A stretch of 64,000 bases of DNA from Cryphonectria parasitica EP155 (lineage: Eukaryota; Ascomycota; Sordariomycetes; Diaporthales; Cryphonectriaceae), in assembly GCF_011745365.1 (NCBI RefSeq), contig NW_024468916.1, forward strand, positions 3,083,630-3,147,629. The letters run 5' to 3'. The notes beneath the pieces were generated by a model that was not told where the DNA came from, did not search any database, and saw only the letters and a list, made by a program, of their open reading frames with translations. Positions 13,415 through 20,116 of the stretch are shown one piece after another. Positions within the stretch are counted from its first letter, which is position 1, and each line of letters opens with the position of its first letter. The translations under genes and the position numbers were made by a program.

Positions 13415-14382
13415 GGTGGACTGGTGAGTTTGAAGACGTAATCGAACAAAAGTGTGACGACGGTAAATTCTGTTGATGTTCGGTTCTGGGAAGGATGTTT
13501 TCCTGAGAGGTGTGGGGAAGGTGATTGGAATTATTGCTCAAGAGGAAACTTAGACAGTCGTCTGCCCGACGGTGTGAATCACCCTTGCTATATAAATAGT
13601 CATCGAGGCAAGACAAACGTCACTCTGAAGCCTCACAAACACCAGCCTGACGTCACATACTTCTGATCGACTCTTTCTTATGCAACACGGCCAGATAACG
13701 GACCTCCTGTTCCTGGGAAGATGATCATTGCAGATCAGAGAGCTGTGCCCTATCCCGCTGTTCCTGACGTCCCCCTTGTAAGCATTGAATTCTTAGCTGT
13801 TCGCTATAGTATCCTTTGGAGCTTTTTACAGGTCAAGTTTGTAAGTCGTGCCGCGCAAACCCCATGTTATGTACGAGGCTGGAGACACCATCGGACTTCC
13901 GAGGCTTGATCACATTATCACAACCATAATTACATCAACTCTTGACTATTAGTCTGACATGTCAAGAATTGAGATCTAAATTGGGAGCTCGTCATGGCTC
14001 GAGTAATTTCCTGCATTTTATTTCAGCCTGTCGGACGGCTGACTTGATAGTGAATGGTACTCAGGGTTAGGGTTAACGGGCTGATACATTTCGCACCAGC
14101 CTTGAACTTCATCATTCTCATCAACCAAAACATGCCAAACCCTTTCAACTTTCCTTTGTCATCTCACGCAACAGCCATCTCCCCAACGACATAACCCTCG
14201 CCGAAAAATAACGCTACCGACACTCATCAGAGAACTTATCCAACGTCTTTCTGCGAGGCTGCAACTGCACTCTACATTCTTTGTCGTCGTTACCGTTGCC
14301 ACCTTCCTTCTTCCTCCCAGGTGCCCTGCCTCATCTTGTACTCACTCCCTTGAGGGTTGCACACCCTCGGTTCTCCTTCAAG
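13415..14382. other. divergent promoter region (small protein / Saf4-type gene)
   Basis: 968 bp between two divergently transcribed genes; no gene is supported within it. It contains a telomere-like motif at 14063-14076 and a pyrimidine-rich leader just before the downstream ATG. An upstream TTG in frame with the splicing-factor ORF is not taken as a start. Confidence 0.5.
14063..14076 (+). promoter_or_regulatory. telobox-like motif upstream of Saf4-type gene
   Basis: AGGGTTAGGGTTAA lies 307-320 bp upstream of the splicing-factor ATG. This is the longest of three telomere-like motifs in the window. Regulatory function is inferred only. Confidence 0.35.
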
Positions 14383-15504
14383 ATGCAAGGCTTCAACATG
14401 GGCCGCTACGTGCCCCCCGAGCACGAGGGCGTCCTCTCCGCCAACCAGGCCTCCGGCAAGGGCTACGCCCTCGGCGCCCGTGCCTCCAAGCTGCGGACTG
14501 AGGGCGTCATAACCGTCCGTTTCGAGATGCCCTTTGCTGTCTGGTGCGACCACTGTCGGCCCCACCCCCAGATTATCGGCCAGGGCGTGCGCTTCAACGC
14601 CGAGAAGAAGAAGATCGGGAATTACTACTCCAGCCCCATCTTCTCGTTCCGCATACGCCATGCCGTCTGTGGCGGCGTCATCGAGGTGCGCACCGACCCC
14701 AAGAACACAGCGTACGTGGTTGTGTCGGGCGGCCGGAAGAGGGACACGGGTGAGGGCAAGGCGGCAGATGAGAGCCTGGTGGGGGACGGCCCGCTCATCA
14801 CACCGGCGGAGCGCGAGGAGCAGCGCGAGACCGCCTTCTCGAACCTCGAAAAGACCATCGAGGACCGCGCCGCGCTCGAGAGGGCCAAGGAGAGGATCGA
14901 CGAGATCGGCGAGGTCAGTGCACGGCAGTGGGACGATCCCTATGCGAGGAACCAGGCGCTGCGAAAGTCGTTTCGCGTGGGGAGAAAGGCGAGGGAGAAG
15001 GAGGCCGAGGCTGCGGAGGACATCAAGGAACGGCTTGGGCTGGGCATCGAGCTGTTGCCCGAGACGGAGGAAGATGCGCGGCGGGCACGGCTGGTGGAGT
15101 TTGGTGCGGCGCCCGACCGGGACAGGGAAGAGAGCAGGGCGGAGGGTCGAGTGCTCGCCCAGCCGCTGTTTGGTGGAAACCAGCCGAGGCAGACGGGTAC
15201 GGCAGCGGCGACGACGACGGCCAGCGCGAACGCGAGTGTGCCACCAAGAAAGCTGCTGAAATCGGAGCGGGCTGCTTCGAAGATGAAGCAGTCACTGGTT
15301 TCAGAGATTGTCGGCAACACACGCCTGGCGAGCGACCCCTTCTTGGGGCCGAGGGGCAGGGAGCTGACGAGATCCACTCCTTCTATTCATGGCTTGAAGA
15401 GGAAACGGAATCCCGCCAAGGAATATAGCTCTTCACTGGAGGACAGACCGGCTGAGAAGGTGGCTGCCGTGTCTTCTGGTCTTGTGGATTATGATTCAGA
15501 CTGA
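14383..15504 (+). CDS. saf4: Saf4/CCDC130-type spliceosomal protein (CWC16 family)
   Basis: Single-exon 373-residue member of the Yju2/CWC16/CCDC130 family, which associates with the spliceosome during the catalytic steps. Family blocks: MQGFNMGRYVPPEHEG at the N-terminus, VRFEMPFAVWCDHC (zinc-ligand pair), FNAEKKKIGNYYSSPIFSF, then HAVCGGVIEVRTDPKN and YVVVSGG. The Y-Y-S-S-P-I form fits the CCDC130/Saf4 branch better than Yju2. One usual Cys of the second zinc pair appears as His (HAVC). The C-terminal half is charged and helical, then disordered with a basic HGLKRKRN patch. The ATG at 14383 is preferred because the conserved N-terminus starts there; the open frame upstream begins only with TTG. 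Nuclear location is expected. Confidence 0.9.
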   Translation: MQGFNMGRYVPPEHEGVLSANQASGKGYALGARASKLRTEGVITVRFEMPFAVWCDHCRPHPQIIGQGVRFNAEKKKIGNYYSSPIFSFRIRHAVCGGVIEVRTDPKNTAYVVVSGGRKRDTGEGKAADESLVGDGPLITPAEREEQRETAFSNLEKTIEDRAALERAKERIDEIGEVSARQWDDPYARNQALRKSFRVGRKAREKEAEAAEDIKERLGLGIELLPETEEDARRARLVEFGAAPDRDREESRAEGRVLAQPLFGGNQPRQTGTAAATTTASANASVPPRKLLKSERAASKMKQSLVSEIVGNTRLASDPFLGPRGRELTRSTPSIHGLKRKRNPAKEYSSSLEDRPAEKVAAVSSGLVDYDSD

Positions 15505-16031: not shown

Positions 16032-17314
16032 TCACACATCGTCCAGGCGACCTGCAGGCTCCTCGTCTTCATCCTCACCGAAGCTGGCCACGGAGCTCAT
16101 GTCGTCGTCGTCCTCGCTCTCTGCACCAGCCTCCTCGGCGGCATCCTTGCTCGCATATCGCTGAACGTACTCTGTTCCAAATGTAAGCGTGTGAGGCAGT
16201 TGAATGAGAATAATTATTCGGGAAACGGGGAGAATGTTCAGGGAAGACAAAGAAAAAGAGAAGGGAGGAGGGAAAGAAGAAAATAGAAGGCCTTACCTCG
16301 AACCTTGGAGTCATACGAGGCTTGGTCCCTGAGCATCAAGGCAGCGGCCTCGCCGTTCAGGGGATCGGAGGGGTTTGGATAGCGCAGGAGATGGGGGAGG
16401 AATGCCTCGAAGATGTTGATCATATCATACATTGGCGACCAGGTCTGATTGATGACGTCGAGACAGACGGAGCCGGATCTGGTATCCACGCGACACTTGT
16501 TAGTGATGTCTTCTTCCTCTTCCGGGCTTGAACCTCCTACGTTCTATTCGCGCTCAGAGAATAGGAAATTTCTTCCCCCAAATGATCCCTCTAGACATAG
16601 GAATGATTGGACTCGTGTCCGCTGGTCCACTTACAGCTCGTCTATGTTGGGGTGAAAAATTCGGTTGGTGAAGCCGATGCTGGGGGACTTGTAGGGGTAC
16701 TGGTCGGGTAGCTCGACGTGGACCTTCCAGACACCGCCCTCAAAAGGTGCTGCTCTCCTCGTCAGTTTATTGCCCCCGCCTTCTTTCCTTCTCTTTGCCG
16801 CGACATACTGTCTGTAGGTCCCTTGAACTTGACGTAGAATTCCTGCCTGTTCGAGCATCGTGAGTAACGGGCCGAGGGGAGCTGTAGCGTTCATCGTCGA
16901 CGGTCGGGGATTCCTCACACTGCAGACAAGAGTTAGCCACACCATGGCAGGATTCTGCAAGAGGATACATATTTGCTGTTGAGGATTGGGACGAAGGAAA
17001 ATGTTTGGGGGAAGATCACGCACTGTTGTCGTTGACCAATGTGACCTCGTAGTCGCTCATGAGCCTGCTCCAAATTAGCAATCACGAATGGTTTGCCAGA
17101 GCTGGGACAACCCATACATCCTAGAGACACGTTAGCAAGACTATAGAGGACTCCCAAAGAGCAGTTGCACCGTCATCGAGGCGGGAGACGCACTTCATGA
17201 CCTAGAAAGAGAAACGCCGCCAAGGTTAGCATCTAGATACGACCGAACAACCTCTCGACCAAGACCAAAGAGCCTACTCACATCAGTCTCGATCCGCCGT
17301 CGGGGGCTCGCCAT
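16032..17314 (-). CDS. ubc8: ubiquitin-conjugating enzyme E2, Ubc8/UBE2H type, with micro-exons
   Basis: E2 enzyme whose yeast orthologue Ubc8 works with the GID/CTLH ligase in degrading gluconeogenic enzymes. My model has nine exons: complement(join(16032..16171,16297..16478,16635..16749,16809..16846,16919,17024..17064,17118..17120,17194..17201,17282..17314)), total 561 nt, 186 residues. Exons of 8, 3 and 1 nt are needed to rebuild the conserved N-terminus ([20 protein letters not shown]); each is flanked by good acceptor and donor sites, and most upstream introns show a CTAAC/CTAAT-like branch site. The core has [29 protein letters not shown], the active Cys in [13 protein letters not shown], and [16 protein letters not shown]. 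The tail is acidic and ends [10 protein letters not shown], typical of fungal Ubc8. Introns are 53-156 bp. The gene is divergent from panB. Confidence 0.93.
16919..16919 (-). other. ubc8: single-nucleotide exon of ubc8
   Basis: On the coding strand the sequence reads CTAACTCTTGTCTGCAG, then T, then GTGAGG. The single T lies between a complete acceptor (with branch site) and a complete donor. It joins the A ending exon 17024..17064 to the G starting exon 16809..16846, giving the ATG codon of the conserved N-D-N-M-Q-E-F segment. Without it the reading frame is lost. Confidence 0.8.
17118..17120 (-). other. ubc8: three-nucleotide exon of ubc8
   Basis: Coding-strand GAT between CTAACGTGTCTCTAG and GTATGG. 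It joins AA (end of the 8-nt exon 17194..17201) to G (start of 17024..17064) to make Lys-Met codons in the conserved D-V-M-K-M-L-M-S-D-Y segment. Confidence 0.78.
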
Positions 17315-18905
17315 ATTGCCTGCGCGTGGTGGTAGTGATGGTGGTGGCGGCTTCAAGAGTTCCACGGGTTCGACTGTTGTGTCTTGAAGACTGCTGCAGA
17401 TGTTGGCGGTGGCCGGAAGGGGGAAGGGCGTGGGGAGAAAGCAACGACGTCAGTGCTCTAGTTCGGTCGGGCGCGGGCGTCGCGGAAAGAGTCGAAGGTC
17501 GCTACAATGCTCAGAGAGATGCCAAAGAAGGTCAAAGTGACGAAGAGAGTCAAGAAAAGCTTGATGGGAAGGAGAACAAGGTGGGAAAACAGATAGTGAC
17601 TGTATGGGAGACTTGTCGTGGTTCGATGTGAGGCGTGAAGTAGAGTGAGGCGAGGTGAGTAGAGTTCGGATGCCTGACGTTTACCCTTTGCTCTAAGTAG
17701 ATTACAGAGGCCGGGACCGGGAACGGGGGAGGGGCCAACGTAGGACGAGGGGGGGGGGGGGGGCAATTGTACAGGGGACGACAAAGAGGTGAAGGGCTGC
17801 CCTAACCATCAAAGGGTAGGACAGTATGGAGCTACGTGGGGTTGTTCCTACGTCGTGTGGGTGTATCACAGTGCACTCTGTCTGGGCGTGTATGGCCAGG
17901 TACCCCGGCAGCTGGGTCACAGGGATCATGACGCCCAGGATGATGGATGTGATGGTACATAGGGACATTTCGGGCTTCATGACTCTTGAGTCACTTTGTT
18001 TCTCTCTCTCCCCCTCTCTCTTCCTCCATTCTTCTTGTTCCGATTTCTTCTTCTCATGGTTATTCATCTATCATTATTGTTTCTTCTTCTTCTTCTTTCC
18101 CTTCTGCTTTGTCCACTAGTTGAAGGAATGAGGGGTATTCTCATGACGAGAGAGATGACTACTAGTAGATAAGGAAGGCTATTATAATAGAGCAAGGCTG
18201 ACATGATATATGTATACTTACATACAGTTTATAAAAAATATTTTATTTTGCATCTGACATTGAAACAACACGTATATCACCAACGCTTGTGGAAATCATT
18301 CGGCTCACGCTTTTAGTTGTCTCGTGTGTCGATTGTAATTCTCCAGTAAAGGGCCTAGTACTGGTGTGTTATTGAGTAGCACTATAACATTTAGTGGGAT
18401 GCCTGTCATAAAAGGCCATGCCTGTCTACGTACTAAGCCTCGGCTGGACTGGCCCCGGCCCCCTCCCAAACCCCTAAACGGCCCTCACAGCAGCGGCTGG
18501 CATGCAGTACATAAACCACCTGGAGAGCAAGTACTAAAGTATGTAAGCAGCATGGGTCCCGCCGCCCCCCAATAGGGAAAACCAATCCGAGGCTGACATG
18601 CCCTTTTCTACGCCTGCAACTATCATCATGATGAGAACTTTCGGTGTATAAAAACTGCCAGCTTGCAAATTACTGTCCGCGATCGAGGATGGATACGCTC
18701 TTTTCGTTCTCTTATCCCTACCATTTCGAAACCGGTCAATGAGTGATTTCTGATCGGGAATGGTTTTTGAAGAAGGGAAAGAAAAAAATAAATTATTCCA
18801 TAAATTTCCTCCCGAGTCTTTCAGATCTTAGCCACCATCGCCAATCTGGATACATAAGTACTCAAGTACACAGCATACACTTATATTTCATGCTTTGCAT
18901 ACACG
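17315..18905. other. divergent promoter region (ubc8 / panB)
   Basis: 1.6 kb without a supportable gene. It holds the upstream regions of ubc8 and panB, a 14-base G run at about 17750-17763, pyrimidine-rich DNA at 17998-18115, and an AT-rich stretch near 18180-18260. Confidence 0.5.
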
Positions 18906-20116
18906 ATGAACACTTTCTCAACAACACTACGGTCATGCGCTACCCTGGCGCGGGTCTCGCCTCACCCACCATCACCTTCACTGCGCATCTCACCATCCCT
19001 TCTCGTCGCCCGCCCCCTCCTGTTCTCGTCCCCGTCGCCCTCGCAGACCCGTCACAGTTCCCACTCCCCACTAGGCACACCACATGCTGCAACAAGAAAG
19101 AAGATCACCCTCGGCACACTCCGATCCATGTATCAGAAGAACGAGCCCATCACCATGATCACGGCCCATGACTTCCCGTCCGCTCACGTTGGCGATGCAG
19201 CGGGCATGGACATGATCCTTGTCGGTGACAGCCTCGCCATGGTCGCTCTCGGGATGGAGGACACAAGTGAGGTGTTGGTGGAGGAGATGCTGTTGCACTG
19301 TCGAAGTGTTGCGAGGGCGACCAGGTCCGCATTTACCGTAAGAAAACCACCGTCTCTCCTTAGTACATTTCATCTTATCATCTTCGCTTTTCGCCTCCCC
19401 ACCCAGCGTGGCACCGGAGTGGAAAATTCACTTTTAGTTCTTCTCGTCTTGTCCCCCTCCCCCCCCCCCCTCCTCTTTCTTTTTGAGGTCAGGCCGTTCT
19501 GACCACCTTACAGGTTGGCGACCTCCCAATGGGCTCATATGAGATCTCGCCCGAGCAAGCCCTAGAGACGGCGATCCGCTTCATCAAGACTGGGAGAGTA
19601 CAGGGCATCAAGCTCGAAGGCGGGAGAGAGATGGCGCCGTCCATCAAGCGCATCACCACAGCCGGCATCCCCGTCTTAGCACATGTCGGCCTCACGCCGC
19701 AGCGGCAAAATGCCCTCGGCGGGTTTAGGGTGCAGGGCAAGACAGCAGCCGGCGCACACAGAGTGCTTGACGATGCACTGGCCGTGCAGGAGGCTGGCGC
19801 ATTTGCTTGTGTCCTCGAAGCCGTGCCCGCCGAGGTCGCTGCCCTCATCACCAAGAAGTTGTCCATTCCGACCATCGGTATCGGTGCAGGCAATGGATGC
19901 TCTGGTCAGGTGCTGGTGCAGATTGACATGATGGGGAACTTCCCACCTGGACGCTTTCTGCCCAAATTTGTCAAGAAGTATGGCGATATCTGGTCCGAGA
20001 GCATGAAGGCCATGAAGGCATACCGGGATGAGGTCAAGAGCCGGGCATACCCGGCACCTGAACACACATACCCGATATCGAAAGCAGAATTAGAGGCGTT
20101 CGAAAAGTCCATATAG
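18906..20116 (+). CDS. panB: 3-methyl-2-oxobutanoate hydroxymethyltransferase
   Basis: Ketopantoate hydroxymethyltransferase, the first committed step of pantothenate and CoA synthesis; it transfers a hydroxymethyl group from 5,10-methylene-THF to 2-oxoisovalerate. CDS join(18906..19337,19514..20116), 344 residues; the 176-bp intron has a long C/T tract before the CAG acceptor. The first ~60 residues are Ser/Arg/Pro-rich with no acidic residue, fitting a mitochondrial presequence. Motifs: ITMITAHDFPSAHVGDAAG, ILVGDSLAMVALG (metal-binding Asp), the junction giving VGDLPMGSYE, IKLEGG, IPVLAHVGLTPQ, and IPTIGIGAGNGCSGQVLV. The downstream neighbour ATG12 converges with only about 180 bp between stops. 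Confidence 0.95.

What the first reader, a model, noticed from the sequence alone, without database searches (positions are those of the whole stretch)
16809..17314. Exons of 1, 3 and 8 nucleotides in the ubc8 gene
Between the ATG exon and the E2 core, the conserved protein can only be rebuilt if an 8-nt exon (17194-17201), a 3-nt exon GAT (17118-17120) and a single-nucleotide exon T (16919) are spliced in. Each sits between full acceptor and donor sites (for example CTAAC...CTGCAG | T | GTGAGG). With all nine exons the length is 561 nt, divisible by three, and the N-terminus matches the UBE2H/Ubc8 family. Skipping the 1-nt exon destroys the frame, so inclusion of a one-base exon would be obligatory for a conserved E2. 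Single-nucleotide exons are very rarely documented; exon-definition models do not explain them, and stepwise intron removal (the first splice recreating a donor at AT|GTGAGG) would.
Basis: partly seen in the sequence, partly recalled or inferred. Interest (0 to 1): 0.9.

Follow-up and report, generated by a model that had tools for sequence, protein, structure and literature searches.

The report
One-base exon in fungal ubc8
A fungal gene for a ubiquitin-conjugating enzyme appears to need an exon one DNA letter long, beside exons of three and eight letters, to make its protein; relatives suggest that the arrangement is old and that automatic gene models mostly get it wrong.

Summary
On the minus strand ubc8 (UBE2H/Ubc8 family) has nine exons, including 8 nt (17201-17194), 3 nt (17120-17118) and 1 nt (T, 16919), 561 nt with stop. 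Of 33 in-frame GT-AG solutions enumerated, the 1-nt one scores best on a hand-set scale and is the only one giving NDNMQEF. Comparable signals occur in under 1% of shuffles or window stretches.

Relatives give the strongest support. Of 229 listed proteins, all 51 without an NCBI label (probably transcript contigs; inferred) read NDNMQEF-like. Of 176 non-plant NCBI models 19 do, 137 carry wrong joins, 20 lack the motif; in 137 of 137 wrong joins the first residue fits an A-initial codon, as if the upstream exon ends in A. Nineteen read MY or MF, exposing T|GTAY/GTTY. So the 1-nt exon looks ancient in Pezizomycotina and often misannotated.

No RNA of this species and no DNA of a fungal relative could be read; 22 NDNKF models stay unexplained. 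The main rival, a donor 4 nt downstream giving NDNSAQEF, is in frame but weak and absent from the 51. One-nt nuclear exons are known (plant APC11, VPS55; Fusarium CYP621A): a new, apparently widespread member.

The parts
17282..17314 (-). exon 1, 33 nt, [11 protein letters not shown]
17202..17281 (-). intron 1, 80 nt, GTGAGT...GCTAAC...CTAG
17194..17201 (-). exon 2, 8 nt GTCATGAA
17121..17193 (-). intron 2, 73 nt, GTGCGT...GCTAAC...CTAG
17118..17120 (-). exon 3, 3 nt GAT; its G completes AAG, its AT begins ATG
17065..17117 (-). intron 3, 53 nt, GTATGG...GCTAAT...GCAG
17024..17064 (-). exon 4, 41 nt, ends AAC A (phase 1)
16920..17023 (-). intron 4, 104 nt, GTGCGT...GCTAAC...CTGCAG
16919..16919 (-). 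exon 5, single nucleotide T, middle base of the conserved Met codon A|T|G
16847..16918 (-). intron 5, 72 nt, GTGAGG...TACTCAC...ACAG
16809..16846 (-). exon 6, 38 nt, starts G CAG GAA (phase 2)
16750..16808 (-). intron 6, 59 nt
16635..16749 (-). exon 7, 115 nt
16479..16634 (-). intron 7, 156 nt
16297..16478 (-). exon 8, 182 nt, with the VCLDV stretch (active-site Cys assignment recalled)
16172..16296 (-). intron 8, 125 nt
16032..16171 (-). exon 9, 140 nt including TGA; acidic tail
17018..17019 (-). GT of the rival donor (AACAGTGC|GTGATC), 4 nt downstream of the intron 4 donor; in frame without the 1-nt exon

Best explanation
ubc8 carries two introns one nucleotide apart, both inside the Met29 codon of a conserved ubiquitin-conjugating enzyme: intron 4 after A (phase 1) and intron 5 before G (phase 2). 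The T between them is an obligatory single-nucleotide exon. Both introns are short and each has its own donor, branch motif and acceptor, so they are most likely recognised by intron definition and removed one after the other. If intron 4 goes first, the joined ...ACAT|GTGAGG is the donor for intron 5 and fits the recalled U1 consensus slightly better (C at -3, A at -2) than the unspliced AGT|GTGAGG. If intron 5 goes first, CTGCAG|T is still the first AG after its branch motif. Either order leaves A+T+G=ATG. The 3-nt and 8-nt exons upstream would be handled the same way. Shown: sequence, frame, signals, and how relatives read. Inferred: splicing itself, its order, and descent of the arrangement from early Pezizomycotina.
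For: Nine exons give an intact E2 that matches 8pmq_E without a gap here. Best score of 33 in-frame GT-AG solutions (weights set by hand) and the only one of the 33 giving NDNMQEF. Signals by chance under 1%. Of 229 listed relatives, 51 of 51 without an NCBI label read M[QS]EF and carry the residue from the 3-nt exon (37, 14). Of 176 non-plant NCBI models 19 read M; 137 have a wrong join whose first residue is S,T,N,K,R,I or M, all possible with an A-initial codon (137 of 137); in the 98 that run on to QEF the last inserted residue can end in G (98 of 98). This fits a phase-1 donor after A and a phase-2 acceptor before G CAG, one nucleotide short. 19 models read MY or MF after NDN, i.e. T followed by GTAY/GTTY. 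Four unlabelled proteins have a gene model identical to them from the W(K)xHVE motif to the end: P0003/P0010 Cytospora schulzeri, P0117/P0169 Aspergillus nanangensis, P0105/P0167 Penicillium chrysogenum, P0070/P0092 Ilyonectria; the unlabelled one reads NDNMQEF and the model does not, 4 of 4 (P0117/P0169 differ at 1 of 154 residues when counted from the FYVRF motif).
Against: No RNA of this species and no DNA of a fungal relative was read. That the 51 proteins come from transcripts is inferred from mostly 1-3 kb contigs with unbroken frames; the source codes (lgn, jgi, ena, merc) are not explained by the tool, and some may be from species lacking these introns. 22 of 178 NCBI models read NDNKF, a join that I cannot derive, and 4 read NDNRQEF, which a G exon could also explain. 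Three of the 19 models with M (Gryganskiella, Saitoella, Taphrina) lie outside Pezizomycotina (recalled). RNA of introns 4-5 folds no better than shuffles (z=+1.48).
Confidence: 0.92

Rival explanations
1. No 1-nt exon: one 173-nt intron is removed with a donor 4 nt downstream (AACAGTGC|GTGATC...ACAG|GCAG), giving NDNSAQEF, one residue longer.
For: In frame, no stop. 25 of 178 NCBI models show a join of this form (SxQE), e.g. P0045 Dichotomopilus NDNSAQEF.
Against: GTGATC lacks the +5 G present in all 8 donors of this gene; lower score (9.1 against 10.75, hand-set); it ignores CTAAC...CTGCAG|T|GTGAGG. 0 of 51 proteins without an NCBI label read S here, although one of the three searches used such a misjoin (P0019) as query (best 120 of 5493 listed). 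The inserted residue varies among models (K, M, A, Q, T, L, E, G, R) as expected if it only reports donor positions +3/+4 plus G.
Confidence: 0.05
2. Assembly or sequencing error: the true gene has one ordinary intron at this codon, and the 1-nt and 3-nt exons are artefacts.
For: Only one assembly was available.
Against: The same phase mismatch is inferred in gene models of many genera, and the flanking signals are complete.
Confidence: 0.01
3. The stretch is a stwintron, an internal intron splitting the donor of an external one, removed entirely.
For: Two abutting introns needing consecutive splicing, as in stwintrons (PMC9024468, passages seen).
Against: Intron 5 has a complete donor (GTGAGG) not split by intron 4; removing everything drops T and shifts the frame.
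Confidence: 0.02
4. The 1-nt exon is real but a recent local oddity of this lineage, not ancient.
For: DNA of relatives was not seen.
Against: Misjoins of the same form occur in models named from Aspergillus, Penicillium, Coccidioides, Fusarium, Claviceps, Neurospora, Tuber, Geoglossum, Dothistroma, Cytospora and others (names; joins).
Confidence: 0.07

Closest known systems
Arabidopsis APC11 1-nt exon (PMC4674806, parts 1 and 2 of 3 read)
   Same: Constitutive single nucleotide between AG and GT, needed for the frame; the authors favour intron definition combined with recursive, one-after-the-other removal.
   Different: Plant, subunit of APC/C, shown with cDNA and GFP constructs; here a fungal E2 without RNA proof.
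Plant VPS55 and APC11 1-nt microexons (PMC8831610, passages seen)
   Same: Well conserved in land plants; missing from the reference annotations of the species examined there.
   Different: Plants; confirmed by RNA-seq and RT-PCR.
Fusarium CYP621A 1-nt exon (PMC12940212, parts 1 and 2 of 3 read)
   Same: Filamentous ascomycete; a phase-1 boundary cannot join a phase-2 exon; 1-nt exon inside a conserved codon.
   Different: G not T; 20 orthologues of one genus, a rarely expressed P450; 18 SRA reads shown by the authors. Here a conserved E2 gene and apparently a whole subphylum, without reads.
Stwintrons of Hypoxylaceae (PMC9024468, abstract and passages seen)
   Same: Consecutive splicing of nested introns in Sordariomycetes.
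   Different: Donor split by an internal intron; the whole stretch is removed.
Trichoderma Xlr2 20-nt microexon (PMC11121469, passages seen)
   Same: Fungal micro-exon missed by gene prediction.
   Different: 20 nt, inclusion depends on glucose, a regulatory switch.
Mitochondrial single-base exons (placozoan cox1 PMC5436844, Ophiostoma PMC12308204; search listing only)
   Same: Exons of one base reported, going by title or listing.
   Different: Organelle genes, other intron types (recalled).

Membership tests
single-nucleotide exons | one coding nucleotide between a complete acceptor and a complete donor | tested here: met
   CTAAC...CTGCAG|T|GTGAGG, introns 104 and 72 nt
single-nucleotide exons | inclusion needed for frame and conserved residue | tested here: met
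   skipping stops after 76 residues; T gives Met of NDNMQEF
single-nucleotide exons | cDNA of the same organism contains it | not testable with these tools
   no RNA reads; only proteins of relatives without an NCBI label (51 of 51)
single-nucleotide exons | conserved in related genes | tested here: inconclusive
   inferred from protein misjoins; relatives' DNA not seen
UBE2H/Ubc8 E2 enzymes | UBC core and best match to Ubc8/UBE2H rather than other E2s | tested here: met
   PF00179; top PDB sequences are 8pmq_E (yeast Ubc8, recalled) and two UBE2H entries at 222-246 bits, E2 D2/UbcH5b about 99
[quoted passage not shown]
   intron 5 donor GTGAGG is intact
stwintron [D1,2] | whole stretch removed with frame kept | tested here: not met
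   whole removal shifts the frame

The most novel reading that the evidence does not exclude
The 1-nt exon of ubc8, with its 3-nt and 8-nt neighbours, is an ancient obligatory feature of essentially all Pezizomycotina, kept since before its classes split, spliced stepwise, and overlooked because most gene models misread it. It would be the most widespread single-nucleotide exon known in fungi and a natural test bed for how spliceosomes handle splice sites one base apart.
Probability: 0.75. Interest if true: 0.85.

Novelty: new member of a known kind. Interest (0 to 1): 0.74.

Why it matters
Single-nucleotide exons are at the physical limit of splicing: the factors that bind a 3' splice site and the next 5' splice site can hardly sit one base apart at once (established reasoning, also in PMC4674806). 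The nuclear cases that my searches found are two plant genes and one Fusarium P450. A conserved E2 that appears to need one across a subphylum with good laboratory organisms (Neurospora, Aspergillus) would make the order and machinery of such splicing directly testable. It also means that most of the NCBI ubc8 models listed here (157 of 176 non-plant entries) differ from the family at the N-terminus, and suggests that gene finders should allow 1-nt exons.

Tried and rejected
DNA of relatives was sought in plasmids (no match), viral contigs (none confirmed) and genome contigs (3 prokaryotic loci at 28-33% identity, not fungal and not read further); the own genome has no relatives and gives no file. 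So relatives were read only as proteins, from three searches each listing the best 120 of 4956, 5493 and 5603 hits, 229 distinct proteins in all. P0018 and P0206, labelled both NCBI and jgi or lgn, were counted as NCBI; both read M. RNA structure linking the two introns: not better than shuffles. In-frame alternatives: 33 enumerated, best 25 printed, all 33 checked for NDNMQEF; one with a 7-nt exon gives NDNTNMQEF but uses a weak donor GTATCC and adds two residues. A second ubc8 copy: none among 18 matches. Not explained: the 22 NDNKF models, 4 NDNRQEF models, and MHPL/MSVT in P0043 and P0104; 20 non-plant models lack the NDN motif and say nothing about this site. No intron matrix was trained; donor and branch weights are hand-set from recalled fungal consensus. 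Literature: no paper listed is described there as reporting a 1-nt exon in ubc8; lists were partial (15 of 18; 12 of 21; 20 of 155). I read two of three parts of two papers and passages of three others; subscription papers are not covered.

Full report
What is there. The window is from a 43.8-Mb, 17-contig genome of a filamentous ascomycete. Over the C-terminal part the closest listed proteins are Diaporthe and Cytospora models and the unlabelled P0003 (92.8% each for P0049, P0011, P0010, P0003), so it is probably a member of Diaporthales (inferred). On the minus strand 17314-16032 lies the only Ubc8 orthologue found in the genome. Nine exons of 33, 8, 3, 41, 1, 38, 115, 182 and 140 nt give 561 nt including the stop and 186 residues. 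It is an E2 (PF00179), best matched in the PDB by 8pmq_E (yeast Ubc8, recalled) and human-type UBE2H entries. 8pmq_E aligns without gap through the micro-exon region (query [21 protein letters not shown], chain VMKLLMSDHQVDLINDSMQEF).

The micro-exons. AAG ATG CTC is built from exon 2 (..AA), exon 3 (GAT) and exon 4 (GCTC..). AAC ATG CAG is built from exon 4 (..AAC A), exon 5 (T) and exon 6 (G CAG..). All eight introns are GT-AG, 53-156 nt, with G at donor +5; introns 1-5 have CTAAC, CTAAT or CTCAC upstream of the acceptor. Without T the frame shifts and stops after 76 residues; without the 8-nt exon it stops after 41; without GAT it stays open, one residue shorter.

Is it chance? All one- and two-intron GT-AG solutions between exons 4 and 6 with introns of at least 45 nt and an open frame were enumerated: 33. 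The 1-nt solution ranks first (10.75, hand-set weights) and is the only one with NDNMQEF. The simplest rival, a donor 4 nt downstream, scores 9.1 and gives NDNSAQEF. A comparable acceptor-N-donor with branch motif occurs in 0.28% of 5000 shuffles (0.08% with T) and in 0.61% of 6384 window stretches (0.14% with T). The pattern was set after seeing the site.

Relatives. Three protein searches, each listing the best 120 of about 5000-5600 hits, gave 229 distinct proteins. I sorted them by source label: 178 with an NCBI label (taken as gene models) and 51 without (lgn, jgi, ena, merc; mostly contigs of about 1-3 kb). That the latter are transcript assemblies is my inference from unbroken frames. 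All 51 of 51 read M followed by QEF or SEF after the NDN-like motif, and all have the residue encoded through the 3-nt exon (37, 14). Of the 178 NCBI entries two are named as plants (P0001, P0029). Of the other 176, 19 read M, 137 read something else, 20 lack the motif. Three of the 19 are from outside Pezizomycotina (recalled).

The wrong models are informative because they translate pieces of intron. In 137 of 137 the first wrong residue is one that an A-initial codon can encode, and among the 98 that run on to QEF the last inserted residue is one that a G-final codon can encode (98 of 98). Both sets of residues are broad and the entries are related, so these are not independent events. They fit an upstream exon ending AAC A and a downstream exon starting G CAG across these species: phase 1 against phase 2, one nucleotide short. 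Twenty-five models have the form NDN-S-x-QE with x compatible with NNG, as expected when the donor is moved 4 nt, since GTRAGT contains a second GT. Nineteen models read MY or MF, i.e. ATG TAY or ATG TTY: T directly followed by GTAY or GTTY, a donor, read through. Fifty of 98 end in R before QEF, as AG|G CAG read through would give. In four pairs that are identical from the W(K)xHVE motif to the end, the unlabelled protein has NDNMQEF and the gene model does not: P0003/P0010 (Cytospora schulzeri), P0117/P0169 (Aspergillus nanangensis), P0105/P0167 (Penicillium chrysogenum), P0070/P0092 (Ilyonectria); counted from the FYVRF motif three remain identical and P0117/P0169 differ at 1 of 154. Same species is not shown. 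For the 3-nt exon, 55 of 178 models skip it (four-residue VMKL type), 51 have the five-residue form, the other 72 read through donors, drop parts or could not be classed.

Age. Misjoined models carry names from Sordariomycetes, Leotiomycetes, Dothideomycetes, Eurotiomycetes, Pezizomycetes (Tuber) and Geoglossum (class assignments recalled), while the models from Saitoella, Taphrina and Gryganskiella read M. The arrangement is therefore probably as old as Pezizomycotina. This is inference: no DNA of a fungal relative was available.

Mechanism. Exon definition can hardly act across one base. Both introns are short with complete signals, so intron definition with sequential removal is the likely route, as Guo and Liu suggested for APC11 (PMC4674806). 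Removing intron 4 first gives ACAT|GTGAGG; removing intron 5 first leaves CTGCAG|TGCAGG with the correct AG first after the branch motif. Order not determined. It is not a stwintron: no splice element is split and one base is kept (compare PMC9024468, passages).

Known cases. APC11 in Arabidopsis (PMC4674806), APC11 and VPS55 in land plants (PMC8831610), CYP621A in Fusarium (PMC12940212). This is a new member of that kind; what is new is the gene and the apparent breadth. The papers listed (some lists partial) include none described as reporting a 1-nt exon in ubc8.

Against. No RNA, no relatives' DNA, one assembly; 22 NDNKF and 4 NDNRQEF models remain unexplained; the 51 sequences are transcripts only by inference; the intron RNA shows no special fold.

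Noticed in passing
14281-15504 (+): Neighbouring convergent gene encodes a Saf4/Yju2 splicing factor (PF04502, 218.7 bits), ending 0.5 kb from the ubc8 stop codon; whether this is more than coincidence was not tested.
   Followed up: partly
19487-20116 (+): Open frame matching ketopantoate hydroxymethyltransferase (PF02548, 251.2 bits).
   Followed up: no
17749-17763 (+): Run of 15 G upstream of the ubc8 start.
   Followed up: no
public proteins P0023, P0028, P0167 and 19 others: 22 of 178 NCBI ubc8 models read NDNKF, lacking residues; the join that produces this is not clear.
   Followed up: partly
PMC12940212: Presents its Fusarium case as the second example of a 1-nt exon, although PMC8831610 (2022) had already reported one in plant VPS55.
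   Followed up: yes
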